Virus record (IMG/VR): IMGVR_UViG_3300048014_000389
Coordinates: 1 to 25,559 of that record
From: a virus
DNA length: 25,559 nucleotides
Direction: 5' to 3' (one strand)
Shown: positions 1,925-23,448 of the stretch, piece by piece
Layout of the letters: the number at the start of each line of letters is the position of its first letter
How positions within the stretch are numbered: position 1 is the stretch's first letter
Translations under genes and position numbers: made by a program
Notes under the pieces: model-generated
Databases searched by the model: none
Seen by the model: only the letters and a program-made list of their open reading frames with translations
Told to the model about the DNA's origin: nothing

Positions 1925-4231
1925 TCAGAGCACCGTTCCGGCCGGAAGCCGCCAATTGGAGCCGTCGCTGGTGCAGGGCAGGCCGTAGGCGCCAGCCGGG
2001 CCGGCGTCGGTCACGAAGATCTGCGTGCCCGCGCCCAGCGCCGATGCGCTCGGAACCGTCGCCGTGGTGAAGCTGGGCAGCCGGAAGGGCAGATTGCTGA
2101 CGGCCTGGCTGGCGCTCACCGTCATCTTGTCGCTGTAGGCGCCGCCGCTGACGTAGCTGATGCGCCATTGATGCTGGAAGATGGCCAGCACGTCGCCCGG
2201 TTGGACGCTCGTGGGGCCGCCCATGATCAAGCCGACCGGGTCGCCGTCCGCGCTCGGCAGGAAGAAGCCCACCCGGTCGGCGCTGTCGGGGATCGGGACA
2301 CTGGTCAGGCGCGCGTTGTTGATCGTGACGTCGTTGAAGTCGATCACGCCATCGACCCATGCGGGATCGAAGCCCTGCAGGTTAGCCGGAGCGTCCACGG
2401 CGCTGTAGAAGCCCATGGCGGCGATCTCGACGACGTTGGCCTTGGGTAGGCGCGAATAGGCGTCGGCCGTCGTCTTCAACATATAGGTCATGGGCGACGT
2501 GCTGGTGCCGAACCCCGCGGCCACGATTTCGAAATGGCTTGCGAGCACCGCGCCGTTGAGGGTCAGGAGGCTGCTGTTGGCGGCGACGTCGGCCTCCACC
2601 GCGAAGGCATAGCCGCAGGTCAAAGTCACATGGCTGCTGGCGCCCCCCCAGAACACAACGAAGTCGCCGCTGGGATCCTGCACCTGGCCCGTGATGACGT
2701 TGCCGCCGCCATAGCTGACGAGGCCGGCCCTGTGGCCCGCGATGTTGCGCCAGCCCGCGCCCCATGCCTTGATGGCCTCGATCGTGTCGGAGGCGGCTTC
2801 GTACCAGAGCAGCAGGCTTTCCAGCCCGCAATAACCCGGCACCAGGTTGCTGAACTTGATGTCATAGGCGTTGATCACGGCGCCCCGGCCGCCGCAGCCG
2901 ACGCTCTCGATATCGCGGACGTGGCTGCCGCCCGCGCCCTCGATGTAGAAGGCGTCGCCGCCGAAGCCGGCGATCAAGAGATCCGCCAGCATGTCGCGCG
3001 GATCGTTGGACAGCACTGGGCTGGACTTGACCAGGGCCGCGTCGTTCGCCCCGCCGTCGTTGAACAGGGTGATCCACTGGATGGCGGTCTGGCCGAAGTT
3101 TGCCGTGCTGTCCGGGGTCTGATTGGGGCCCGGCGCCTCGCCGTACTGGAACAGATAGGGATCGGCTTCCTTGGCCTGGTCCGCGCCTGCGCCGCTATAG
3201 CCCGGACGGCCGTAGCTCCAGCCCCCGAACAGGGTGAAGCCCGTAAACATGCACGCCGCGTTGGCGGACGATGACTTCTGGACGAAGATTTCCGGATCCG
3301 GCTCGCCTTCCAGCGGCGCGCGCTGGATCAGCAGGACCGTGCCGGGATCGCAATAATAGCCGCAGCGGTTTCGCGGACGGAACTTGCGCGCGATGCCGAC
3401 GCCCGCCGGCCATTTCACATAGAGGCCAGGAACGCGCTGGGCCGCCTGTCCCCCCGCAAACTGGGCGCGGGCCACCGACTGGCCGTTGGCGATCGCCGTG
3501 TCGTAGGCGACGGTATAGGCCGCGTTCATCGCCGCCACGGCCACGTCCATGGCCGCCTCGGCCGCGTCGATCGCCGGCTGGTCATTGCCCTGGCCCAGCA
3601 CGATCCCGGCCTGGGCGGCGAAGGTGGCCATGGTGATTTCGGTCTGGGCGAAGCCCAGGGCCGCCAGCATCTCCGGGATCGTTTCGGCCATCAACACCTG
3701 GGCGCCCAGGGCCGACACAGGCAGACTGGTCTGGCCGGTCGCCAGCATCACCTGGCCCGTGGCGTCGAAGCTCAACACCTTGCTGGCCCGCTGGGCGGCG
3801 TCGGGAAACACCAGCAGCGGCTCGCCGATCGGCGTCATCAGGGCGCGGGCGATCCGCGCGGCCAGGTCCTGGTTCTGGCGTGCGATGTGATCGAGCGCGG
3901 CCTCGCAGACCTGGGGCGAGAAGCCGGCCGCCTCGCCGAAGGTCGAGGGCTGGCCGCTGGCCGTGGCGCGCTGCAGGGTCAAGGTCGATCCGTCCGGCCA
4001 TGCGCCGCCGGCCGGGCCGGCGGTCAGGGTCACATTGCCGCCCGACGCCAGGCTGTTCGCGGCGACCAGGCTGTAGTCGCCCGGGAGCGCCAGGAGCGCC
4101 GCGCCGGCGCCGGTGTCCAGATAGACCACAACGTCGCTGGCGGCCTCATAGGGGAACACCGTGGCGAACGGCCCGGTGGCCGCGCCGGCCAGGGCGTAGA
4201 CGGTGGAAGGCAGGATGGCGGCGAGCGACAT
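1925..4231 (-). CDS. Tailspike / tail fibre with gp17-type N-terminal anchor
   Basis: The 768-residue product would bind the host surface. Residues 1-130 look like the T7 gp17-type virion-binding domain: an FPYEAASDVVVYLDTG strand region, a VTLTAG strand and a QRAT strand, then a helix ending near NQDLAARIARAL. Residues about 250-700 are rich in asparagine, glycine and short hydrophobic strands (for example GGRGAVINAYDIKFSN, GGGNVITGQV), consistent with a right-handed beta helix as in depolymerase tailspikes. The last 50 residues form a separate small domain. No catalytic pair can be assigned by eye. G+C looks somewhat lower than in the neighbouring core genes, as is common for host-range genes that are exchanged. 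The gene follows the ejection proteins and is preceded by the repeated 13-base motif. Confidence 0.82.
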   Translation of the reverse strand: MSLAAILPSTVYALAGAATGPFATVFPYEAASDVVVYLDTGAGAALLALPGDYSLVAANSLASGGNVTLTAGPAGGAWPDGSTLTLQRATASGQPSTFGEAAGFSPQVCEAALDHIARQNQDLAARIARALMTPIGEPLLVFPDAAQRASKVLSFDATGQVMLATGQTSLPVSALGAQVLMAETIPEMLAALGFAQTEITMATFAAQAGIVLGQGNDQPAIDAAEAAMDVAVAAMNAAYTVAYDTAIANGQSVARAQFAGGQAAQRVPGLYVKWPAGVGIARKFRPRNRCGYYCDPGTVLLIQRAPLEGEPDPEIFVQKSSSANAACMFTGFTLFGGWSYGRPGYSGAGADQAKEADPYLFQYGEAPGPNQTPDSTANFGQTAIQWITLFNDGGANDAALVKSSPVLSNDPRDMLADLLIAGFGGDAFYIEGAGGSHVRDIESVGCGGRGAVINAYDIKFSNLVPGYCGLESLLLWYEAASDTIEAIKAWGAGWRNIAGHRAGLVSYGGGNVITGQVQDPSGDFVVFWGGASSHVTLTCGYAFAVEADVAANSSLLTLNGAVLASHFEIVAAGFGTSTSPMTYMLKTTADAYSRLPKANVVEIAAMGFYSAVDAPANLQGFDPAWVDGVIDFNDVTINNARLTSVPIPDSADRVGFFLPSADGDPVGLIMGGPTSVQPGDVLAIFQHQWRISYVSGGAYSDKMTVSASQAVSNLPFRLPSFTTATVPSASALGAGTQIFVTDAGPAGAYGLPCTSDGSNWRLPAGTVL

Positions 4232-4256
4232 GCCAGCAGGATCGCCCGCCCGCGCG

Positions 4257-4269
4257 GGCGTCGGATGAA
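4257..4269 (-). promoter_or_regulatory. Repeated intergenic motif, copy ahead of tailspike gene
   Basis: Minus-strand sequence TTCATCCGACGCC lies in the 42-nt gap between the ejection protein stop and the tailspike ATG, ending 25 nt before the ATG. The identical 13-mer lies the same distance before the nozzle gene and again before the small-protein/portal block. Both this copy and the nozzle copy also share GCGAT nine bases before the ATG. A phage-specific promoter, processing site or translation element is inferred. Confidence 0.45.
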
Positions 4270-4273
4270 GGCG

Positions 4274-7000
4274 CTAGCCGCCGGCCATGCTGGGTTCCAC
4301 CAGGAAACCGCCGCCGTCCTCGCGCGTGCGCGTCTCATAGCGGCTGAGGAAGCCGGGGCTGACCGCCTCCTCCATGCGCCAGAGCACCAGGTAATCCAGC
4401 GCCAGGCGCGTGTACCAGAGATTGACCAGGGGGATGTTCGACGCGCCCAGGCGCACGATCTCGCCGGGGATCTGGGAGCGCCCCGTGGTCGGGCTGATCG
4501 CGCCGCCGTGCGCGGCCTGGCGCACGATCTGGGCCACCTGCTCCAGGTCGCCGATCGCCGGGCCGGCAATGGACGACAGGGTGAATTCCAGGCCGTTGCG
4601 GTTCTGCTCGCCGAACAGATAGTCGCCATAGATGCCCAGCCCCCCGCCCTGGGCCAGGGCCGCCGCCCAGATCTTGGCGGTCTCCACCGGATCGGCGCCG
4701 ATCACGCTGCGCGGCGCCTGGCCCTTGACGATCAGCTTGGCGTTCATCGACAGATAGCCGGCGATCGCGCCCGCCACGATGAAGTGCGCCATCAGGGCCA
4801 CGGGGGCATAGCCGGCATAGCCCTGCAGCGCGGGGGCCAGGTGGCGGCCCAGGATGGTTTGCAGGAAGCCGCGGAACTGGCTGAACCCGCGCATGGCCTC
4901 GCCCATGGGCGTGCCCGCGCGCGTGCCCCACGCCAGGCCGATCTGCTCGCGCATGCGCGGCTCGCTGGTGGTGTTGTCCAGAAAGTCGTGGATCAGGGTG
5001 CGGAAGCGCAGGCCCAGCTCCGCCCGCGCCGCCTCGGCCGCTTGGGGCGTGCGGCCCTTTTTCGGCGTTCCGGCCCAGGCGTGCATGTCGGCCGGCTCGA
5101 TCTTGTCGAGGTTGTCCAGCGTGAAATATTTGCGCCCGTCGGCCGCCGGCTCGATCCCGGCCCGCGCCAGGTCCCAGGCCTTGGGGTCGATGCCGAAGCG
5201 CTCGAAGGTCTCGCGCGTGCCCTGCTCCAGCCCGTCCCAGGCGTGGTCGCTCTCGATCCCCAGATGCCGGGCCAGCATCTCGGCCGCGCCCTTGCGCACG
5301 CCCTCGTTGGCGAAATCGAACAGATTGATCCGGTACATCAGCCGCGTGGCCCAGGCGCCCCAGCCCAGGGTTCCGTCCGTGGCGTTGTACTGGCCGCCGA
5401 TATGGCCGGCGAAGGACCGCGCGCCCACGTCCAGCAGCTCGGCCGCGTGGGCGGCGTCGGCCCCCTGCAGGCGCGCGATGCCCCGCAGCGCCCCGTCATA
5501 GCCGCCCAGCAGCGTGCCGCCCACGCGCGCGAAGGCGTGGGCCGTCATGGGCAGGTCCGTGGCCTTGCTGAGCACGATGGAACCCAGCTTGGTCAGGCCC
5601 TCCCAACTGCGGATCCCGCGCGCCACCATGGCCAGGCGCAGGTTCTCCGGCACGTTCAGCCGCCCGTTCAGGGCCTCGAAATCGGCCTGTTGCCGGCCGC
5701 TATAGAGCTTGGTCGCCACGCCCGGGTCGCCCTGGGCGCGGGCCTCCCCGGCCAGCCGGGCGATCTCGGTCGCCCGCGCCGCGTCCGGCGCCGGCCCCCA
5801 GCGCTGCATCAGGGCGGTGTTGCGCGCCCCGCGCTCCAGCTGGCCCATCACGGTCGAGAACAGCGAGCCGCGCCCGTACTTTGTGGCGTAATCGACCCAG
5901 GCGTCGGGATCCTTGAAGTGCAGCACGCGCGATTTCGACACGGCCCGCGCCGTCGACGCCGGCGGCCGAAACTCGCCCAGGTCGCTGGCGCCGGAAATCT
6001 GTTCGTTGCGCCCGGTCACGATGTCGAACCACACATGGTAGAGCATCCGCTCGCGCAGGTCGGCCGCGTTGTCGATAACGCCGCGCATGGCCAGTTCGGC
6101 CGCATTCTCCCGCTGGCCCATCTCCCGGTCGCCGACTGCCTGGTTTTCGGGAAAATCCTGCTCCTCCAAGCCGTCGAACGTCTTGGGATCGAGCCTTGGC
6201 AGGATGTAGTCGCGCCATTGGCGGAACGCGCGCTTGGCCGAGGCCTGGCGCGCGGCGTTCCAGTCGAAGGCGGCGCGCTTGTTCGCCGGCAGCCGGCGGC
6301 CGACTTCCGCCAGTTCGCGCCAGAAGCCGCCGGCCACCTTCAGCCGGTCGTGGCTCTGGCGGGCGATATAGCCCTCCAGCTTGCCGATCCATGCCCCCTG
6401 GGTGTTCTGCGCCAGGCGGTTGTCGTCGAGCGCCTGGGCGAACACCCGGGCGGCATGCAGCGCCCCTTCGTCGCCGGTGGGCTCCACGGATCCGTCGCCG
6501 TTGATGCGCGCCAGCTCCTTGGCGATCTTGCGATCCAGCCCCTTCTCGGCCACGCCCCAGAAGTTGGAGATCCGGCTGCCCAGCCCGGGCATCTTGTCCA
6601 GCCCCAGCTGCACCTGGCCCCACAGGCTCATCATCCGCGCGCGGCCCTCGGCGTCGACGGAGGATCCCGTGAACCGCCCCAGCCGTTCGTCGCCCACGTC
6701 ATAGGCGCGCAGGCGCTGGCTGGCGTCGCCGGGCAGCTGGTCCAGCCGATCCCGCCGGGCCTTGCGCGCCACCTCGGCCGCGACCCGCAATCGCTTTTCG
6801 GTCAGGGCGGCGAAGATCTCCTCCCGCGTCATGGCCCCGGCCGCCTTGGCCAGGGCCGCCCGCGCATCGGCCGTGGGATCGGCCGCCTTGGCCCGGCGGG
6901 CGCGGTCGGCCATGCGGTTGAGCAGATCGTCGATCTCGGCGTCGGAAAAGACGCCGCCGGTCGCCATGCGCACGGCCGTGTGGCAGGCGCGGGTGCTCAT
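4274..7000 (-). CDS. Large internal virion (DNA ejection) protein, T7 gp16 C-terminal-like
   Basis: The 908-residue product follows two other core genes and is probably ejected into the host ahead of the DNA. It is mostly alpha-helical with many charged residues. The region around residues 530-760 has features I associate with podovirus ejection proteins: FANEGVRKGAAEML, an RFGID helix, then RTLIHDFLDNTTSEPRMREQ and a hydrophobic segment near PVALMAHFIVAGAIAGYLSM. No transglycosylase motif is present, unlike T7 gp16, whose N-terminal enzyme domain seems to have its counterpart in the 994-residue gene here. The start at 7000 overlaps the upstream stop as ATGA and has a GGAGAGGGCGAG ribosome binding site. 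The in-frame extension to 7024 is unnecessary. The ejection role is inferred from position, size and composition. Confidence 0.75.
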   Translation of the reverse strand: MSTRACHTAVRMATGGVFSDAEIDDLLNRMADRARRAKAADPTADARAALAKAAGAMTREEIFAALTEKRLRVAAEVARKARRDRLDQLPGDASQRLRAYDVGDERLGRFTGSSVDAEGRARMMSLWGQVQLGLDKMPGLGSRISNFWGVAEKGLDRKIAKELARINGDGSVEPTGDEGALHAARVFAQALDDNRLAQNTQGAWIGKLEGYIARQSHDRLKVAGGFWRELAEVGRRLPANKRAAFDWNAARQASAKRAFRQWRDYILPRLDPKTFDGLEEQDFPENQAVGDREMGQRENAAELAMRGVIDNAADLRERMLYHVWFDIVTGRNEQISGASDLGEFRPPASTARAVSKSRVLHFKDPDAWVDYATKYGRGSLFSTVMGQLERGARNTALMQRWGPAPDAARATEIARLAGEARAQGDPGVATKLYSGRQQADFEALNGRLNVPENLRLAMVARGIRSWEGLTKLGSIVLSKATDLPMTAHAFARVGGTLLGGYDGALRGIARLQGADAAHAAELLDVGARSFAGHIGGQYNATDGTLGWGAWATRLMYRINLFDFANEGVRKGAAEMLARHLGIESDHAWDGLEQGTRETFERFGIDPKAWDLARAGIEPAADGRKYFTLDNLDKIEPADMHAWAGTPKKGRTPQAAEAARAELGLRFRTLIHDFLDNTTSEPRMREQIGLAWGTRAGTPMGEAMRGFSQFRGFLQTILGRHLAPALQGYAGYAPVALMAHFIVAGAIAGYLSMNAKLIVKGQAPRSVIGADPVETAKIWAAALAQGGGLGIYGDYLFGEQNRNGLEFTLSSIAGPAIGDLEQVAQIVRQAAHGGAISPTTGRSQIPGEIVRLGASNIPLVNLWYTRLALDYLVLWRMEEAVSPGFLSRYETRTREDGGGFLVEPSMAGG

Positions 7001-9519
7001 ATCTCGCCCTCTCCAAGCATGCACACCGCCGCCGCCCGCACCGCCTCGGCGATGGTGTTGGGATTGTCTCGATCCTCGGCCGGCTCATCGACCCCGTGCG
7101 CCGCCGCGAAGGCGGCCGTATCCTCGGACAGGGCCTTCAGTTCCGGGTCGGCGGCGATGATGCTGTCGCCGGTTTGGCGCCCGGGCTCCCCTCCACCTCC
7201 GCCGCCCGCGCCTTCAGCGCCGCCGCCATTTTGCGGTGATAGGCCGCGTCCGCCCCCGTCTCGCTCGCCGCCAGGTTCGCGAAGGTCGATGACAGGATCC
7301 CGAGCGGCCCGGGGCTCGGCGGCGCGGCCGGGCGGGCGGACGTCGAGGGGGCCGGCGTCGCCCCGGGCGAAGCGGGCGGCGACGCCGGCGAGGATCTGGC
7401 GAGAGGTGTTTTCATCGGCGACGGCTCCAAACAGGTCCGGCCCCGGCTTCACCCCCAGGGCCTGGCGGGCGTAGTCCTTGAGGGCCGAGGCCAGCTTAGC
7501 CGCCGCCAGCGGTTTCTTGAAGGCCTCGTCGCGGTACATCAGCCGCAGCAGGGCCTCGGTGGTCGGGCCGATCGCCTCCCCGCCGAACAGCTCGCGCTGG
7601 CCCAGGCGCTCGGCCAGCAGCTGGTCAAGCCCGATCCCCTCGGCCTTGGCGTGGCGCACCAGGTCCATGGCCGAGCGCAGGGCGTCGGTGATGTCGAGCG
7701 CGGCGGGGATGTCGCCCCGCGCCGCCGCCGCGCGCATCCGCGCCCAGCCCGGCGCGGCCTCGGCCAGGGCCTCGGCGTGCTGGCGCACGGGGGCGGCCTC
7801 GTCCTCGAACGCCTGGGCGACCAGGCGCGGGTCGCCATAGGCGCGGGCCAGCACCGCCGCCTTGATCCGCCGCGCGCCCTCGGGGCTGAGCGTCCCGTCG
7901 GCCGCCGCCAGGGTGTTCTGGTCGCCGGGGGCCACGCGGTCGATGAAGGCGCGCGCGAAGTCGCGGCTGGTGGTCGGCCCCTGGTTGTCGCGCACATGGT
8001 CGAACAGGGCGTCGGGCATGCGCGCCGCGTCGCTCATGGCCTGTTCGGTGGCGCTCATGCGCTCGGTGACGTCGGCGTTCATCTCCCGGGCCAGGGCCGC
8101 GCGCTGCGCCCCCTGCATGGCCTCGGTGCGCATGCGCACCAGCACCGGCTGTTTCAGGCCCGCGGTGTCGAAGCCCTGGCGCGCCAGCTCGGCCTTGTAG
8201 CGCTCATAGGCTGCGCCGCCCCGGTTGGCCGACCGGCGCAGGGCGATGGTGCGCCCGTTGCCGCTTTCGACCACGCCGTCGGGCGCCACGATCGGCGCGC
8301 CGGCTCCGGCGCCCACGTCGTTCATCAGCAGCTTGGGATTGAGCTCCGCCTCCAGCTGATGGTTGCGCGCCTGGGCGCCCGCGCGGGCGCGGTCGCGCGG
8401 TTGCAGCTCGGGCGGGAAGTTGGGGTTCGGCTGCAGATCGTCGTCGTGGCTGGTGACCAGGTCGCCCAGCTCCGCCAGGCCATAGCGCACGGGGATATCC
8501 GTTCCCCGCGGCGTCACGGCCGTATCGTCGGCCAGGGGGCGAAAGCTGGCCATGGCCGGATCGGCCGTGGTCTCGTCCAGCCGGCCGACGCCCGGGGGAT
8601 TGGCCTCGCGGTCCACATACTGGCCCACGTCCACCGACCGATCGTCGATCGCGCTGTCGAGCGCCAGGGTAAAGGCCCCTTGCCGCGCCTCCGGCGGCAG
8701 GTCGCGCACGGGGTCCGGCACGCCGGCGGGCGGGACGTAGGCGTCCGAGGGCGGCGGCGTCAGCGGTTGCGGCTTGCGCTCGGCCATGCGGCTCAGGCTT
8801 TCCACGCCCTGGCCCAGGAAGTGCATGCCGGTGTGCAATATGGCTCCGGCCGCTATGTCGCGCAGCCCGTCGCCGAAGCTGTAATCGTCGCCGGCGTATT
8901 GGCTGAGCGCCGCGCTGAACCCCACATAGGGCGCGTTGTCCAGAGCGCCGATCGTCAAGGCGCGCACGCCCTGGCCGGCGATATTGCCCAGACGCCCCAG
9001 CTTGGCCACGGCCGCGCCCACCGATCCCGCCACGCGCGCGCCGTCATAGGCGCCCAGGGCGAGGTCGCCCAAACCGCCCGTGCCGACCATCACGCCCAGT
9101 CCCACGGGATCGAGCAGGGAGCCGGTTATGCCGGCCCCGAAATCGGCCAGGGGATTGGGCTTGGTCAGGGCCAGCACATTGTCGCGGAACAGTTTCTCAT
9201 GCGCCTGGGCGCTGCGGAACGCCGCGTCGTCCTGCGTCGTCGCCTCATTGAAGCGCAGATAGCCGGGCACGCCATATTGTTCGTTGGCCTGGTCGGAGGT
9301 CAGCGGCGTGGCCATGCCGAACATGTCCGAAGCGTCGAACCCCAGCTGCTGGCCGGCCTCGATCACCGGCTGCTTGACGGCCTGAAGCGCGCGCGTGGTC
9401 ATGTCGCCGACCCCGGCCTCGACGCCATAGCGCAGGCCCTGGGGCACGGGCAGATAGGCCGCGTTCTGCTCCAGGCTGTCGAGGTCCACCTGCGGGGTCT
9501 GCGCCAGGCCCACGGGCAT
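6997..9519 (-). CDS. Ejection core protein with DdrB-type ParB-like domain
   Basis: The 840-residue product starts at 9519, overlapping the previous stop as ATGA; a longer frame to 9672 runs inside the neighbour and is rejected. Residues 1-245 are helical and glycine/alanine-rich, like a virion core protein. Residues about 345-570 resemble the DdrB-like ParB domain of phage polyvalent proteins: QPRDRARAGAQARNHQLEAE, VAPDGVVESGNGRTIALRR (about 411-429), a VLVRMR strand, then LAREMNADVTERMSATEQA. A helical region with RELFGG (about 642-647) follows. P1 DdrB belongs to the antirestriction proteins delivered with DNA, so protection of entering DNA is a reasonable inference. Between about 7350 and 7180 the coding signal moves to another frame, and the residues given by this frame there (about 724-785) may be wrong. 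Confidence 0.75.
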   Translation of the reverse strand: MPVGLAQTPQVDLDSLEQNAAYLPVPQGLRYGVEAGVGDMTTRALQAVKQPVIEAGQQLGFDASDMFGMATPLTSDQANEQYGVPGYLRFNEATTQDDAAFRSAQAHEKLFRDNVLALTKPNPLADFGAGITGSLLDPVGLGVMVGTGGLGDLALGAYDGARVAGSVGAAVAKLGRLGNIAGQGVRALTIGALDNAPYVGFSAALSQYAGDDYSFGDGLRDIAAGAILHTGMHFLGQGVESLSRMAERKPQPLTPPPSDAYVPPAGVPDPVRDLPPEARQGAFTLALDSAIDDRSVDVGQYVDREANPPGVGRLDETTADPAMASFRPLADDTAVTPRGTDIPVRYGLAELGDLVTSHDDDLQPNPNFPPELQPRDRARAGAQARNHQLEAELNPKLLMNDVGAGAGAPIVAPDGVVESGNGRTIALRRSANRGGAAYERYKAELARQGFDTAGLKQPVLVRMRTEAMQGAQRAALAREMNADVTERMSATEQAMSDAARMPDALFDHVRDNQGPTTSRDFARAFIDRVAPGDQNTLAAADGTLSPEGARRIKAAVLARAYGDPRLVAQAFEDEAAPVRQHAEALAEAAPGWARMRAAAARGDIPAALDITDALRSAMDLVRHAKAEGIGLDQLLAERLGQRELFGGEAIGPTTEALLRLMYRDEAFKKPLAAAKLASALKDYARQALGVKPGPDLFGAVADENTSRQILAGVAARFARGDAGPLDVRPPGRAAEPRAARDPVIDLREPGGERDGGGRGLSPQNGGGAEGAGGGGGGEPGRQTGDSIIAADPELKALSEDTAAFAAAHGVDEPAEDRDNPNTIAEAVRAAAVCMLGEGEI

Positions 9520-12503
9520 CAGTGCGGCCCTTGCAAACGCTTCAGGGCCGCCGGCAGCACCGCCTGCACATAGGCGCGGGTTTCCTGGTTCGGGATCCGG
9601 CTGACGAAATCGGTCAGGCTGATCTTGCCCGTGCGCGGGTCGCCGATGGTCTGCAGCCAGCCGGGGCGCCACTGGCCGGTCTTGGGGTCGCGATAGCCCT
9701 CCAGGCGGCCGGGGCCGGCGTTATAGGCCGCCAACGCCAGGCCGATGCCAGGACCGGCTCCATAGCGGTTGACCGCGTCGGCCAGCACGGCCGTGCCGAT
9801 CTGGCGGTTATAGGCGTCGTCGTGCTGCAACCGGTTCACGTCCAGGGGCTGGCCGAACAGGCGCAGGGCATAGGGCGCGGCCGTTTCGGGCTTGACCTGC
9901 ATCTGGCCCAGAGCCCCGGCCGGGCTCGCCAGGCCGCCGCGGAACCCGCTTTCCCGGCCGTTCACGGCCCAGGCCAGGGCGCCCATGGCCGCGACCTTGG
10001 AGAAGGCGGCCATGGGCTGGCCGTCCGGCCCGACGACGGCGCCCGGCGGCGGCTGGGCGAAGGGATTGGCGGGGGCATTCAGGTCTCCGCCATCGAACCG
10101 GGCCTGCAATTGCGGCCAGGTGGCGCGCACCGGCCGCCCATAGCGGTCCGACACCTGATCCCAGCTTCCGTCCGTCTTGGGGACCATCAGGGTTACACCG
10201 CTGTCGTCCGGCAGCGTCACCCAGCGCCCGCTCGCGTCGATCTTCTGCGCATAGAGCCGGCGTTGATCGTCAGGCGTGCCGGGCAAGCCGGGCGGCGCGA
10301 ACACATTGCGGCCGTCCTGGGTGATCAGCTGCGACAACAAATAGGACGCGCCCTTGCGCGCCTGGGTCGTCCCGATGCCGGCCGACGTGGGAATGGCCAT
10401 GGTGTCGATCATGCGATAGCCCCCCGTCAGGTCGGCCGCCGCCGCCTTGGCCGCCGCGCTGGCCGACAGCCCCTGGCTGTTCATCAGCGACCGGGCGATC
10501 AGCAGGGTGCGGTCGATGCGCGCCTGTTCCAGGTTCTGGGCGCCCGGCAGCGGGCGGATGGCCGCCAGATAGGGGCCAAGGTCGCTTTGCACGGCGGTTT
10601 GCAGTTGCAGCTTCTGGCCTGGGACCATCGGCTGTTTCAGGGTCGGATCGTTCAGCGCCGCCGTGAACCGCCCAAGCTTGGCCGCGTCGGTTTCATAGTC
10701 GGCGATGGCCGACAGCTCCATGGGCGTCAGGTGGGCCGCTTGCAGCTGGCGGCTCAGGATCGCCTGGGGCGAGACGGTCGACCCGTCGGGCAGTTGCAAC
10801 GATTGCGGCAGGTTGCGCACCAGGGCCGCCACGCTCTGCAACGCGGCCAGCCTTTGCTCGGGCGCGGCGTTGATCACGCTGGCCGCCAGGGTCGAGGCGC
10901 TTTCCTGGGGGATCAGCTGATAGGCCCCCGGCGCTATGCCCAGATGCGCCTGGGCGCCCAGGGACTGGCTGGCCAGGGCTTGGCCGCCCTGGGCCGTGGG
11001 CGCGCTCGAATAGGCCTGCCACGCCTGATTGAGCATGGCCCCCCGGTCCTGGCCCGCGCCCGCCCCGGCCGCGCCCTTGCCCTTGGCGGTGTTGATGCTG
11101 AACACCAGCGCCCCGGGGTTCTGGCGCGCCTTCAGCTCGGCCGCCGCCGCCTGCTGCTGGGTCTGCCAGTCGGTGAACTTGGTCGCATAATCCGGATCGG
11201 CGGGCTGGGGCGGCGGCGTGGCCAGGGCGGCATGCACCTGGCTGGTCGGCTGGTCGCGGATCGGGCCGACCAGGGCGAAATTGCGGTCTGCCTGGGTCGC
11301 GGCGGTCTGATAGGTCGCGAATTCCTCCGGCGTGATCGCCCCATGCGACAGGCCCCACGCCACGGCGTCCAGATCCACGCCCGAGCTCTGGCCCGTGGTG
11401 GCGCGGGCGTTGATATCGGCCGCCAGCCTTTGGCGCAGCTGTATGCCTTGCAGCGCCAGGCTCACGCCCTCCGGTCCATGGGCGCGGTTCTCGGCCTGCA
11501 CCCGGGCCATCAGGGTGTCCTTGACCTCGGGTTTCAGCACCGCGTCATAGCGGCCGTCCCGAAGCTCGGTCTGGGCCTGCCCAAAGTTGCCGGCGGTCAC
11601 CAGGCCGTTGATGCGCGCCTGGGCCGCCAGGCCCTGAAACTCCGTCAGAGCGTCCTTGCGCAGGCCTGGGGGGACCGTCGCCACGATGGCGGGCAGCCCG
11701 TTGGCCACCACGCTGTCATAGGCGGCCGGGTTGCTGCTGATGGTGTTGATCAGGGCATAGGCCTGGTCCGTGCCGTTCTTCAGCACATAGGCGTCGGCCC
11801 CATGCTGCTCCACTGCGCCCAGGGTCGCCGCCTCTTCGACGCGCATGGCCGCCAGCTTGGCCTGCATCCGCGATTGCAGGGGCGCGGGCACGCTTTGCAG
11901 GGTTGTCTGGGCGGCCTGGTCGAAGGCCTGAAGGCCAGCGGTCACCAGGCCTTTCTGCGAGCCGTCATAGCCATCGAGCAGGGCCTGTTTGGCGGGCGCG
12001 AAGGCCTGATAGAAGCCCGTCATCGCCCCGTTGGCCTGCACCTCCTGTTGGTCGACCGCGTTCTGGCCCAGCACCGCCGCCTCGTGCTGGATCGCGCGCT
12101 GGCCGAGGGCGGCCAAGGTCTGGTCGGCGGCCTGGCTGAACTCCGCGCGCTGGCCGGGCGTATAGCCGGCCTTGTCGGCGAGGGTCTTGGCCGCCAGGGC
12201 GCGGGCCTTGGCGATCTGGTCGGCAGCGAAGCCGGGCGTCGTGCCGTTCCAGTTGGGCGCTTCGGTGGTCAGTTGGTCGGCCAGGGCGCCGGTCAGGGCT
12301 TGCACGTCCGGCGCCACGGCCTTGCGGTCGGCCTCGGCCTGCACGCGGATCTGCAGCATCTGGGTGCGCTTCTGCATGGCGCCGACCGCCTCGGCCTCCT
12401 GCGCCGCCGCGCCCAGGCCGAAGTCCGTGGGCGCGACCGCGGCCGTGGACGGCTGGGGCCCTTCCACGGCGTCCAGAGGCAGTTGATCGGGGATCCGCGC
12501 CAT
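9519..12503 (-). CDS. Ejection core protein with C-terminal lytic transglycosylase domain
   Basis: The 994-residue product has a long, glutamine- and alanine-rich helical body (about residues 1-800) of the kind found in podovirus internal core proteins. A C-terminal SLT-type lytic transglycosylase domain spans about residues 835-990. The domain shows the catalytic glutamate in the ESGF motif (about residue 851), GQMQVKPETA, AAYNAGPGR (about 925-933) and PNQETRAYV (about 971-979). These are the standard motifs of the family. The enzyme would open peptidoglycan locally during DNA entry. In T7 the equivalent domain sits at the N-terminus of gp16, so the domain position differs here. The start at 12503 overlaps the gp14-like stop as ATGA. 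The next gene overlaps its stop in the same way. Confidence 0.88.
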   Translation of the reverse strand: MARIPDQLPLDAVEGPQPSTAAVAPTDFGLGAAAQEAEAVGAMQKRTQMLQIRVQAEADRKAVAPDVQALTGALADQLTTEAPNWNGTTPGFAADQIAKARALAAKTLADKAGYTPGQRAEFSQAADQTLAALGQRAIQHEAAVLGQNAVDQQEVQANGAMTGFYQAFAPAKQALLDGYDGSQKGLVTAGLQAFDQAAQTTLQSVPAPLQSRMQAKLAAMRVEEAATLGAVEQHGADAYVLKNGTDQAYALINTISSNPAAYDSVVANGLPAIVATVPPGLRKDALTEFQGLAAQARINGLVTAGNFGQAQTELRDGRYDAVLKPEVKDTLMARVQAENRAHGPEGVSLALQGIQLRQRLAADINARATTGQSSGVDLDAVAWGLSHGAITPEEFATYQTAATQADRNFALVGPIRDQPTSQVHAALATPPPQPADPDYATKFTDWQTQQQAAAAELKARQNPGALVFSINTAKGKGAAGAGAGQDRGAMLNQAWQAYSSAPTAQGGQALASQSLGAQAHLGIAPGAYQLIPQESASTLAASVINAAPEQRLAALQSVAALVRNLPQSLQLPDGSTVSPQAILSRQLQAAHLTPMELSAIADYETDAAKLGRFTAALNDPTLKQPMVPGQKLQLQTAVQSDLGPYLAAIRPLPGAQNLEQARIDRTLLIARSLMNSQGLSASAAAKAAAADLTGGYRMIDTMAIPTSAGIGTTQARKGASYLLSQLITQDGRNVFAPPGLPGTPDDQRRLYAQKIDASGRWVTLPDDSGVTLMVPKTDGSWDQVSDRYGRPVRATWPQLQARFDGGDLNAPANPFAQPPPGAVVGPDGQPMAAFSKVAAMGALAWAVNGRESGFRGGLASPAGALGQMQVKPETAAPYALRLFGQPLDVNRLQHDDAYNRQIGTAVLADAVNRYGAGPGIGLALAAYNAGPGRLEGYRDPKTGQWRPGWLQTIGDPRTGKISLTDFVSRIPNQETRAYVQAVLPAALKRLQGPH

Positions 12504-13021
12504 CAGCTGTTTCCGTCGCCATCGACGCCGGAGTCGGCCCAGCCTGCGCCGCCGCTATAGCCGCGCAGGGCCTGGCTGGCCTTCAGCTGCGCCGCCGCGT
12601 TGGCGCTCTGGGCGAAGCCGCCCACCAGCGAGGACGCCCCGCCCACGACCCCGCCGATCAGGCTCTGCACGCCCTGGGCCTGGGCCACGCCGGCCTGGTA
12701 CATGTCGTTCTGCGCCTGCACCCGGCCGCGATAGGCGGCGGCGCGGGCGTTGAACATGGCCCGGTTGGCCAGGTCCTGCACCACGCCCAGGGTCGAGCCG
12801 ACGAAACCGCCGCCATTGGCCGCGCCCTGCACCGCCGCGCTGGCCGCCGCCGCATTGCCGCTCTGTACCGCCTGGCTGGCGGCCTCGCCGCCCTCGGCCT
12901 CGGCCTGGCTGGCGGCGTTGCGCTCGGCCTTGGCCTCGGTATTGCCGGCGAACAGGCCGGTGACGCCCTTCAACAGGCTGCCGATGGCTCCCAGGCCCGC
13001 CGCGATCGTGAACGGGTCCAT
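12503..13021 (-). CDS. Internal virion protein, T7 gp14-like
   Basis: The 172-residue product has a hydrophobic glycine-rich N-terminus (DPFTIAAGLGAIGSLLKGV), then a helical alanine/glutamine-rich stretch. A second glycine-rich hydrophobic segment lies near residues 120-137 (SLIGGVVGGASSLVGGF). This is the usual composition of T7 gp14-like core proteins, which form a channel in the host outer membrane during ejection. Placement between the gp13-like gene and the transglycosylase core gene matches the T7 order 13-14-15-16. It starts 2 nt after the preceding stop. The call rests on composition, size and order rather than on a diagnostic motif. Confidence 0.72.
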   Translation of the reverse strand: MDPFTIAAGLGAIGSLLKGVTGLFAGNTEAKAERNAASQAEAEGGEAASQAVQSGNAAAASAAVQGAANGGGFVGSTLGVVQDLANRAMFNARAAAYRGRVQAQNDMYQAGVAQAQGVQSLIGGVVGGASSLVGGFAQSANAAAQLKASQALRGYSGGAGWADSGVDGDGNS

Positions 13022-13023
13022 TT

Positions 13024-13467
13024 TCAGCGCCGCCGCAGATAGTGGTTATAGACTAGGCCGCCGCGCAGCCGCACCTGCTCGCCCGTGGCTGTGAAGCCCA
13101 GCCGGCCCAGCACCCGCGCCGCCCCGTCGCTGTCGGCCCGCGCCGTGGCCTCGATCGTGCGCGCGCCCAGCTCGGCGGTCATCAGCTCCAGCACACGGGC
13201 CGCCAGGTGCACGACGCGCGGCCAGTCGCGGCGCGGCAGGTCCGACAGATAGGCCCACGCCTCCCACCGCCCTTGGCCATGGTCGAAGCCGCCGCCGAGG
13301 CCGACCACGGCCGCGCCGCGCAGCAGCGCCCAGGTGCGCCCGGGCGGCGGTCCGGCGTCCCAGTCCCAGGCCATGGCCCGGCGGTCCTGCTCGAAATCTC
13401 CGCGCAGGGTGAAGGCGTCGGCGTCGCCGGGCTTGTAGGGACGCAGTTTCAGCCCGGGCTTAGCCAC
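13024..13467 (-). CDS. GNAT-fold protein, T7 gp13-like
   Basis: The 147-residue product has an acetyltransferase-like layout: an N-terminal LRPYKPGDAD strand and helix, a central VVGLGGG strand and turn, a long helix with ARVLELMTAELGARTIEATA, and the closing RVLGRLGFTATGE motif typical of the GNAT fold. T7 gp13 and the related phage family DUF2833 share this fold and are needed for correct internal core assembly. Gene order here (12-13-14-like) agrees. The start is GTG at 13467, overlapping the nozzle gene stop by 8 nt, with no clear ribosome binding site, so reinitiation is likely. Whether it acetylates anything is unknown. A stand-alone GNAT enzyme is the alternative. Confidence 0.75.
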   Translation of the reverse strand: MAKPGLKLRPYKPGDADAFTLRGDFEQDRRAMAWDWDAGPPPGRTWALLRGAAVVGLGGGFDHGQGRWEAWAYLSDLPRRDWPRVVHLAARVLELMTAELGARTIEATARADSDGAARVLGRLGFTATGEQVRLRGGLVYNHYLRRR

Positions 13468-21579: not shown

Positions 21580-23448
21580 TCATTGTGTGGCCCCCAGCAC
21601 CTGGCGCACGCTCGCGCCATACAGATTGGCGTTGAAGCTGCAGGTCGAGGCGCCGCACACGAAGTCCAGATACATCAGCACGCCGTAGGCGTAGCTGTTC
21701 AGCGTCAGTTCGCGGGTCTGCAGGAAGAGCGTATTGCCGGTGTAGGCCGGGAAGCCTGAGGTATCCAGAAAGTCGCCCCAGGCCGCCGCCTGCTGCGCCG
21801 TGGAGCCGTTGGGAACCGTCGCGCCCAGGCTGATTGCGCTCCCTTGTTCCGCCTGCAGCTTGAGGCGGATGCCTTCCAGCCCGACCGTGGCGCTTTGGCC
21901 GCTGACCGGACCCATGGTCAGTTCATCAATCGCCGCACGGATCGTCCAGCCGGACTGAAGCGTGTTGGAGCCGCCGACCCCGAACGTGGATTGCGAGGTG
22001 CTGGCGCTGCTGTTCATGAAATACAGGCGATAGGCGCAGCCGGCCGTCTCGCCCGTCATGCTGACGGCGAGGTTCAGCGCCGTCCCGTTGCGTCCCGAGG
22101 CGTGGGCGACCTCGGACGCGACGGCGGTTCCGGTGCCGGTGCAATTGCTGGTCCGCGTCAGGTAGACCTTGGCGTCGCGGGTGCCCGACCAGGGCGTCTC
22201 GCCGGAGGTGACGGCCGTCGTCCCGGTCTTGTTGAGCGCCGTGGGCAGCAAGTTTCCGGTCGGCTCCAGCGTCTGGTAATAGTCGGCCGATGGCGAACTG
22301 TCCGTCAGGTACGGACCGGGGAAATAGCTGGCGAGCTGATTCCAGATCACCTGAGCAATGCCGAAACAACCCAGGCTGTTGCAATGCAGGCCGTCCGACG
22401 TCCAGGCGACAGGCAAACCTGTCGCGCCGTTGCTGGCGCCGTCCAGGTTGGGATCATTCACGTAGGGCGTGGGGTTGACCACGATCACGCCGGGCACGAG
22501 CGCGGGCAACTGGGTCACATACCAACGGCGCAGCTCGTTGGCGTTCTGGCGCGCGGACGAACCGTTGCTGTCGGCGCGGTCCAGGGGCGCGATGACGATG
22601 GGCCTGATGCCGGCCGCGACGAAGGCGTTGATGCTCTTGAGCACGCTCGCCTGGGTCTGGGCTAGGGTGTAACCCGTGCCCGAGGCGTTGCCCGCCCCGT
22701 TACTGGGGTTGGACAGATTGTTCGTCCCGCACATCCACAGGACGTTCTTGGCGCCCGAGGCGATGATCCCCGGGATGAAGGCTTCGGCCTGGACGGTATC
22801 CAGGCCGCCCACGGCGTATTCGCCCGATCCGGTGATGATCGAGGTCAGAACTGCGCCGGAGCCAGAGCCTGACGTGTCCGTGATCGTCGCCTGGGGGCCG
22901 ACGGTGCTGTAGTAGCCGGCAGAGGTGATCGTGACCCCGGTGATCACGCCGTTGGTGATGACCGGCGTGGCCGTGGGCGAGGCGCCCCCGCCCGATGAAG
23001 CGAAGCTGATGCTCGTGGTCGCAGGGTTGTAGCCAGAGCCGCCCCGCGCGACCAAGACCTGTACCGTCTGGCCGAAGTTGCCGCCGGCCACGGGCCATCC
23101 GCCGGACGCCGCGCCGGAGCCGGTCGGGTTGATCCGCACGGGCCGCAGCCGGCCGCCGGACAGTGCGACCAGCTGCGTGAAAACCGCCTTCGGATACCAC
23201 GTATCGACCCCGCTCGACGAGCTATTGAAGTTCACTGCATTGGCTGTGAGGCTGTCGCAGGCGCCGACAATCGAACCGCCGAACTGTGTGCGCGGGATTG
23301 TTAGAGCAGCGCTCGCATTCGCCCCCGCAGCCCCCGCCATACCCCGGGCCACGGGGTCGATCTGGGCTGGGGCGGGCGTGGGTGTGAGGCAGAGCGCCAG
23401 AAGGGCGGCGATCCAGCCGTGACGGACGCGCGTCGGCCGGCGCATCAT
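21580..23448 (-). CDS. Exported SGNH/GDSL-type hydrolase with inserted beta module
   Basis: The 622-residue product is predicted to be secreted. A signal peptide covers residues 1-28 (basic MMRRPTRVRHG, hydrophobic core, APA cleavage site before Q29). SGNH landmarks follow: block I GACDSLT (nucleophile S66), block III WMCGTNNL (G241, N243/N244) and block V DGLHCN (D352, H355), as in esterases that remove acyl groups from glycans or lipids. Between blocks I and III, residues about 130-205 carry the GGSGYNP ... ITNGVITGVTITSAGYYSTV pattern of phage tail beta modules. Residues about 380-622 look like a carbohydrate-binding beta sandwich. It overlaps the upstream gene by ATGA. G+C looks lower than in portal or core genes, suggesting later acquisition. 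A virion esterase and a secreted host-surface modifier are both possible. Confidence 0.75.
   Translation of the reverse strand: MMRRPTRVRHGWIAALLALCLTPTPAPAQIDPVARGMAGAAGANASAALTIPRTQFGGSIVGACDSLTANAVNFNSSSSGVDTWYPKAVFTQLVALSGGRLRPVRINPTGSGAASGGWPVAGGNFGQTVQVLVARGGSGYNPATTSISFASSGGGASPTATPVITNGVITGVTITSAGYYSTVGPQATITDTSGSGSGAVLTSIITGSGEYAVGGLDTVQAEAFIPGIIASGAKNVLWMCGTNNLSNPSNGAGNASGTGYTLAQTQASVLKSINAFVAAGIRPIVIAPLDRADSNGSSARQNANELRRWYVTQLPALVPGVIVVNPTPYVNDPNLDGASNGATGLPVAWTSDGLHCNSLGCFGIAQVIWNQLASYFPGPYLTDSSPSADYYQTLEPTGNLLPTALNKTGTTAVTSGETPWSGTRDAKVYLTRTSNCTGTGTAVASEVAHASGRNGTALNLAVSMTGETAGCAYRLYFMNSSASTSQSTFGVGGSNTLQSGWTIRAAIDELTMGPVSGQSATVGLEGIRLKLQAEQGSAISLGATVPNGSTAQQAAAWGDFLDTSGFPAYTGNTLFLQTRELTLNSYAYGVLMYLDFVCGASTCSFNANLYGASVRQVLGATQ

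What the first reader, a model, noticed from the sequence alone, without database searches (positions are those of the whole stretch)
6997..9519. DdrB-type ParB-like domain built into a T7-like ejection core protein
Residues about 345-570 of this core protein carry the pattern of the ParB-like domain seen in P1 DdrB and other polyvalent proteins (including VAPDGVVESGNGRTIALRR). The gene sits between a transglycosylase core protein and a gp16-like ejection protein. Such domains belong to proteins delivered with DNA to protect it. Fusion to the ejection core would place an anti-defence or DNA-handling activity in the cell at the moment of entry.
Basis: partly seen in the sequence, partly recalled or inferred. 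Interest (0 to 1): 0.7.

Follow-up and report, generated by a model that had tools for sequence, protein, structure and literature searches.

The report
ParB effector carried by phage ejection protein
A short-tailed phage has attached a DdrB-type ParB enzyme domain to a protein that is probably injected with its DNA, and close relatives carry different enzymes (ADP-ribosyltransferases, or nothing) at the same position, so the spot looks like an interchangeable cargo bay for delivering effectors into bacteria.

Summary
The gene runs on the minus strand (9519 to 6997, 840 aa). Residues 338-464 match Pfam ddrB-ParB (E 4.8e-26). The conserved unit is larger, about 325-720, and its 67-sequence AlphaFold2 model (pLDDT 94.9) matches other phage DdrB-like proteins.

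The label needs correcting. The cassette is epsilon15-like: lytic transglycosylase (gp15 position), this protein (gp16 position), then a homologue of epsilon15 gp17, not T7 gp16. In the relative YA3 the proteins of all three positions were found in virions by published mass spectrometry.

The main result is comparative. In 237 distinct proteins from this gene position, an N-terminal module specific to the position is often followed by variable cargo: DdrB-ParB, ADP-ribosyltransferase, or a second ParB-like domain often with a zeta-toxin kinase. Many have no recognised cargo. The window's closest relative by gp17 (L030, 66%) keeps the N-terminal module and C-terminal tail but carries ART instead of ParB. 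A tree excluding that swap is rejected (AU p 0.00015).

I conclude it is an injected ParB-type effector on a modular ejection protein. Antirestriction is unproven. DdrB-ParB and polyvalent proteins are known; the cargo-bay architecture appears undescribed.

The parts
6997..9519 (-). 840-aa gene-16-position ejection protein carrying the DdrB-ParB module
   Evidence: ORF and translation; PF18763; start and stop overlaps with neighbours
8734..9519 (-). N-terminal module, residues 1-262, shared by slot proteins with different cargo
   Evidence: 47% identity over residues 1-305 with L030, which lacks ParB; profile matches 209 of 4501 ORFs, all of them slot-type proteins or an N-terminal fragment beside a slot gene, 0 of the shuffled set
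8128..8508 (-). Pfam ddrB-ParB domain, residues 338-464
   Evidence: E 4.8e-26, 91.7 bits; G420, N421, R423 and Y441 invariant in 67 sequences
7360..8547 (-). whole conserved ParB module, residues 325-720 (ParB domain plus helical follow-on region 467-700)
   Evidence: 67-sequence alignment A6; AlphaFold2 pLDDT 94.9; Foldseek match to DdrB-like viral proteins, TM 0.88, E 2.2e-28
7162..7359 (-). Gly/Pro/Arg-rich low-complexity linker, residues 721-786
   Evidence: sequence; pLDDT mostly below 50
7000..7161 (-). conserved C-terminal tail, residues 787-840 (IAADPELKAL...NTIAEAVRAAAVC)
   Evidence: conserved in ParB relatives and, split in two, around the ART cargo of L030
9519..12503 (-). lytic transglycosylase ejection protein (epsilon15 gp15 position)
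   Evidence: PF01464 E 4e-11; phrog_1044
4274..7000 (-). epsilon15 gp17-like core/pilot protein; start corrected from 7024 to ATG at 7000
   Evidence: phrog_684 E 3.1e-120; epsilon15 gp17 is in the same family; start by overlap and by relatives
12503..13021 (-). small internal virion protein (gp14 position)
   Evidence: phrog_418 E 2.4e-6
13024..13467 (-). GNAT-family protein at the position of epsilon15 gp13
   Evidence: PF13302 E 1e-5; epsilon15 record

Best explanation
The protein is an epsilon15-type gene-16-position ejection protein that carries a DdrB-ParB enzyme as cargo. Its N-terminal module (and perhaps the conserved C-terminal tail) places it among the internal core proteins in the capsid. 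It leaves the virion with the transglycosylase and the gp17-like core protein at the start of infection, and this puts the ParB module into the cell with the first DNA. There the module acts on DNA or nucleotides through the ParB/sulfiredoxin pocket around Arg423, most likely as an NTP-regulated nicking or DNA-binding activity that blunts host defence or host DNA function. Shown here: the domain, its retained conserved residues, its fold, its fusion to the slot-specific N-module, and replacement of the cargo in relatives. Shown by others in a relative: presence of the slot protein in virions. Inferred: injection, arrival in the cytoplasm, enzymatic activity and target.
For: Domain and invariant pocket residues. 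Confident model that matches DdrB-like proteins strongly and ParB/Srx proteins more weakly. The ParB region is the most conserved part of the protein: 64-81% identity against 28-47% for the N-module in five relatives, so it is maintained. N-module specific to this slot. The same slot carries ART, NUDIX plus ART, zeta-toxin kinase, a second ParB-like domain, or no recognised cargo. L030 carries an HExxH motif (the hallmark of the zincin MPTase domain, read by eye) and an ART-PolyVal-like domain between the same N-module and a split copy of the same tail; it is nested among ParB phages, and the alternative is rejected with p 0.000145. DdrB-ParB is also joined to a different, epsilon15-type N-module in Piluca and TPWB-05. 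YA3 gp15-gp17, the same three positions, were detected in purified virions by mass spectrometry (PMC7326022). P1 DdrB is a virion head protein and the Dar proteins are co-ejected (PMC9024508, PMC12810830).
Against: No experiment on this phage. The YA3 slot protein seen in virions has the epsilon15-type N-module, not the window's type. Direct profile comparison of my N-module with epsilon15 gp16 was not significant. Solved-structure searches found no ParB match for the whole module, and a profile comparison with a few chromosomal ParB proteins was not significant. P1 DdrB may be an assembly factor rather than an effector. No catalytic activity has been measured for any DdrB-ParB domain in the papers I read.
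Confidence: 0.7

Rival explanations
1. The ParB module is a structural or DNA-handling part of the ejection machine: a DNA clamp or end-binding domain that organises, leads or shields phage DNA during packaging and ejection, not an effector with a host target.
For: ParB-family proteins bind DNA; the module sits in a core-protein cassette; phage 80alpha gp44 is a precedent for an ejected genome-end binder (title of PMC7290940). A second, different ParB-like family (DGHQR type) fills the same slot in a distant clade, which would fit repeated selection for one DNA-linked role.
Against: Close relatives replace it by ART (L030) or have no recognised cargo at all (about 580-aa slot proteins), so ejection does not need it.
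Confidence: 0.15
2. The ParB module is an injected antirestriction device in the strict sense (a special case of the best explanation): it protects the entering DNA from restriction enzymes.
For: Ulx, DarB and DdrB of P1 are linked to EcoB/EcoK sensitivity (PMC12810830).
Against: No direct antirestriction activity is known for the domain; Iyer et al. favour nuclease/NTPase roles (PMC5512222).
Confidence: 0.2
3. As reported for P1 DdrB, the domain is an adaptor that loads another protein into the capsid, with no action of its own in the host.
For: P1 DdrB is listed as aiding DarB addition to the capsid and is nonessential (PMC9024508, PMC10695390).
Against: The 25.6-kb window shows no DarB-like partner in the cassette; cargo is replaced by unrelated enzymes; pocket residues are invariant in 67 sequences.
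Confidence: 0.08
4. The fusion is an accident of one genome (chimeric contig or recent recombination) without function.
For: The record is a 25.6-kb metagenomic fragment.
Against: The same architecture recurs in independent contigs and in Brevundimonas and Caulobacteraceae genomes, with the ParB region as the most conserved part.
Confidence: 0.01

Closest known systems
DdrB-like ParB domain, Pfam PF18763 (phage P1 DdrB)
   Same: Family match far over cut-off, conserved arginine and tyrosine, late-gene position, about 30% identity to P1 DdrB over 334-657
   Different: P1 DdrB has a C-terminal zincin metallopeptidase according to Iyer et al.; this protein has no HExxH motif and instead has the ejection-slot N-module and tail
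Polyvalent proteins (Iyer et al. 2017, PMC5512222)
   Same: Effector-type domains joined to virion-associated sequence in late phage genes; ART, MPTase and ParB are all known polyvalent domains; a ParB-lysozyme fusion in Acinetobacter prophages was already noted
   Different: Here one gene position with a conserved delivery module carries exchangeable cargo; swapping within one ejection-protein family between close relatives is not described there in the parts I read
Epsilon15 gp15-gp16-gp17 ejection cassette
   Same: Same gene order, downstream gp17 homologue (phrog_684), GNAT and small internal virion protein upstream
   Different: Epsilon15 gp16 (634 aa) has no recognised cargo; the window's N-module is of the Ab31 type
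T7 internal core proteins gp14-gp15-gp16
   Same: Analogous role of a three-protein ejected core including a transglycosylase
   Different: No profile match of the N-module or gp17 family to T7 gp16; different arrangement of the transglycosylase
Phage P1 DarB and other injected virion enzymes
   Same: Virion-carried protein thought to act at entry; an N-terminal stretch of DarB suffices to load a foreign protein into the capsid (PMC9024508)
   Different: Here the carrier is a podovirus ejection-cassette protein with a much larger N-module

Membership tests
ddrB-ParB (PF18763) | Profile score over the curated cut-off | tested here: met
   91.7 bits against 27.6
ddrB-ParB (PF18763) | Highly conserved arginine of the active-site pocket | tested here: met
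   R423 in 67 of 67 sequences; taken to be the arginine of Iyer et al. by its position in GNGR
ddrB-ParB (PF18763) | Asp/Asn at the end of strand 2 | tested here: inconclusive
   N421 is invariant and follows strand 92-95 of the model, but the published alignment figure is not held, so the strand assignment could not be checked
ddrB-ParB (PF18763) | Extra helix with a conserved tyrosine | tested here: met
   Y441 in 67 of 67, in model helix 112-123, i.e. residues 436-447
ParB/sulfiredoxin superfamily | Fold match to ParB/Srx structures | tested here: inconclusive
   Viral library: DdrB-like proteins E 2.2e-28; ParB/Srx-named proteins only at E about 0.009-0.4 with probability up to 0.99. PDB: no match for the whole 396-residue model; the ParB part alone could not be submitted
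P1 DdrB orthologue | C-terminal zincin metallopeptidase | tested here: not met
   No HExxH in the protein; no such Pfam match
Epsilon15-type ejection cassette | gp17 (phrog_684) homologue directly downstream | tested here: met
   E 3.1e-120; epsilon15 gp17 in the same family
Epsilon15-type ejection cassette | Slot protein homologous to epsilon15 gp16 | tested here: inconclusive
   Direct profile comparison not significant; linked by position, and phrog_11561 matches epsilon15 gp16 with its N-terminal part and the window protein with its ParB part
Epsilon15-type ejection cassette | Slot protein present in virions | not testable with these tools
   Published mass spectrometry shows it for the relative YA3 (PMC7326022)
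T7-like internal core | Homology to T7 gp15 or gp16 | tested here: not met
   No match of the N-module or gp17 profiles to T7 gp16; T7 gp15 was not tested. Weak phrog_342 links in relatives only
Polyvalent protein | Two or more functionally disparate domains in one phage late-gene protein | tested here: met
   Slot-specific N-module plus ParB module

The most novel reading that the evidence does not exclude
The gene-16 position of epsilon15-like podophages is a general cargo bay. A conserved N-terminal module (and perhaps the C-terminal tail) is sufficient for loading and injection, and phages exchange the enzyme attached to it (DdrB-ParB, ART, zeta-type kinase, a second ParB-like enzyme) in response to host defences.
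Probability: 0.5. Interest if true: 0.8.

Novelty: new variant of a known kind. Interest (0 to 1): 0.62.

Why it matters
If right, it turns a scattered set of 'hypothetical' internal virion proteins into a defined delivery position: one can read off which enzyme a podophage probably injects by looking at one gene. It offers naturally matched pairs (window-type and L030-type) that differ in cargo, which makes the question of what injected ParB and ART domains do directly testable.

Tried and rejected
Full-length structure with 6 relatives: ParB part unreliable, replaced by a 67-sequence model of residues 325-720. PDB fold search with the whole module: only meaningless matches; PDB sequence search: nothing. 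Profile comparison with chromosomal ParB proteins: not significant; one search used a poor motif filter and only two sequences. Profile comparison of the N-module with epsilon15 gp16: not significant. A gp17 alignment spanning all clades was too diverse to search with. NCBIfam: nothing for this protein. Membrane segments in the N-module: only borderline hydrophobic stretches, not consistent among relatives. Considered and rejected: chimeric contig (recurs widely), T7 gp16 homology of the downstream gene (it is phrog_684). Papers: no paper in the held library combines 'polyvalent protein' and 'ejection protein'; subscription journals are largely missing, so novelty is provisional.

Full report
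What is there. The window is a late-gene fragment of a podovirus, transcribed on the minus strand. The 840-aa ORF at 9519-6997 is coupled by overlapping stop and start codons to a transglycosylase gene before it and to a gp17-like gene after it. The latter most likely starts at 7000, not 7024. Residues 338-464 match Pfam ddrB-ParB with 91.7 bits, E 4.8e-26, and residues 334-657 align with P1 DdrB at about 30% identity.

The domain. Relatives show that the conserved unit is about 325-720: the Pfam ParB domain plus a helical follow-on region that accompanies it in all the relatives compared, including giant polyvalent proteins. A 67-sequence alignment gave an AlphaFold2 model with mean pLDDT 94.9. 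Foldseek matches it to viral DdrB-like proteins (TM 0.88, E 2.2e-28) and, more weakly, to viral proteins named ParB or ParB/sulfiredoxin; the PDB search of the whole module gave nothing. G420, N421, R423 and Y441 are invariant in all 67 sequences, in line with the conserved arginine and tyrosine described by Iyer et al. (PMC5512222). No metallopeptidase motif is present, unlike P1 DdrB as described there.

The setting. The gene behind is phrog_684 (E 3.1e-120), the family of epsilon15 gp17, reported as the core protein of epsilon15 (PMC5850374). The gene before has an SLT domain, and epsilon15 gp15 is annotated as lytic transglycosylase-like. The order in epsilon15 itself is GNAT, small internal virion protein, gp15, gp16, gp17, as in the window. 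So this protein occupies the epsilon15 gp16 position, and 'T7-like' and 'gp16-like' in the finding should be replaced. Direct sequence homology of the window's N-module to epsilon15 gp16 was not significant. Piluca's ParB-carrying slot protein links the two: it belongs to phrog_11561, whose N-terminal part also matches epsilon15 gp16 and YA3 gp16 and whose C-terminal part matches the window's ParB.

The comparative result. I collected loci with the gp17-like gene from viral contigs and genomes and with the ParB module, and read the gene directly upstream of gp17. Among 237 distinct slot proteins, 161 carry the window's type of N-module, with cargo DdrB-ParB in 27, ART in 29, a DGHQR-type ParB-like sequence in 4, and none recognised by these profiles in 101; one more protein matches both N-module profiles. 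Four carry DdrB-ParB on an epsilon15-type N-module. Others match neither N-module profile but still carry DdrB-ParB (13) or the DGHQR type (41). These counts depend on the seeds used and on the 80-locus limits, and are not natural frequencies. The window-type N-module profile was built partly from these proteins; of 148 slot proteins from loci fetched afterwards, 78 match it. Across 4501 ORFs its 209 matches are slot proteins, slot-type ParB proteins whose gp17 is cut off or unassigned, or, in one phage, a 152-aa N-terminal fragment next to a slot gene; no unrelated ORF and none of the shuffled sequences matched.

The swap. L030 is the closest relative by gp17 (66% identity). Its slot protein shares residues 1-305 with the window protein at 47% identity and both halves of the C-terminal tail, but instead of ParB it has a region with an HExxH motif and a weak ART-PolyVal match (E 0.0012, below Pfam's cut-off). 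No ddrB-ParB is found anywhere in that 41-kb record. In gp17 trees it lies inside the ParB clade as sister of the window (98 SH-aLRT in the large tree; 93/95 in the careful tree), and a tree holding the nine ParB rows together without it is rejected, p-AU 0.000145. The group was named after seeing the first tree, so that p-value is somewhat optimistic. ParB is the most conserved part of the protein in its relatives (64-81% identity against 28-47% for the N-module), so where it is kept it is under strong constraint.

Virion evidence. In Pseudomonas phage YA3, the 13 proteins found in purified virions include orf15-orf17, the same three positions; those three genes differ from Ab31 (under 30% identity) while the other ten structural genes are over 97% identical (PMC7326022). 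YA3 gp17 matches the gp17 profile and YA3 gp16 matches the epsilon15 gp16 family. This supports both virion presence of slot proteins and exchange of this cassette, though YA3 gp16 has no ParB.

Mechanism. The best-supported account is an ejection protein with an exchangeable enzymatic cargo; the ParB module would act on DNA or nucleotides right after entry. Loading, injection and activity are inferred. An antirestriction role is possible but unproven: P1 DdrB is a head protein said to aid DarB loading (PMC9024508), and the predicted activity of the family is an NTP-regulated nuclease (PMC5512222). Replacement by unrelated enzymes, or by nothing recognised, in relatives argues against a purely structural role.

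Novelty. The domain and the idea of polyvalent proteins are known, including a ParB-lysozyme fusion in Acinetobacter prophages. What I did not find described, within an incomplete library, is one ejection-gene position with a conserved module and swapped cargo. I therefore call it a new variant of a known kind.

Noticed in passing
L118:4925-8410, L121:5025-8153, L289-L361 slot genes: A second ParB-like sequence not recognised by Pfam (FQFK.GGD..GVT..L.GV..WD....DG..FIADGHQRLGLAKR) occupies the same slot in a distant clade, sometimes with a zeta-toxin kinase domain (PF06414 in 14 of 37 long slot proteins scanned).
   Followed up: partly
L104:1109-9211, L108:1232-9490: The ParB-carrying slot protein and the gp17-like protein are fused into one ORF of about 2,700 aa.
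   Followed up: partly
L066:3378-6992: Slot protein with both a NUDIX and an ART domain.
   Followed up: no
L012:10405-13275, L013:7438-10287, L033:3692-6745: Slot proteins that combine a transglycosylase-like SLT match with the ParB module, so the SLT domain also moves between cassette genes (as in BcepC6B, L008).
   Followed up: partly
window 21580-23448: Protein with a lipase-family match (phrog_6102, E 1.4e-15) between the portal and terminase genes; function in this position unclear.
   Followed up: no
window 1925-4231: Tail-fibre gene in which, in relatives, only about the first 170-180 residues are conserved.
   Followed up: no
L099:3754-4212 and 4230-7004: In this phage the N-module appears to be split into a separate 152-aa ORF just before the ART-carrying slot gene.
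   Followed up: no
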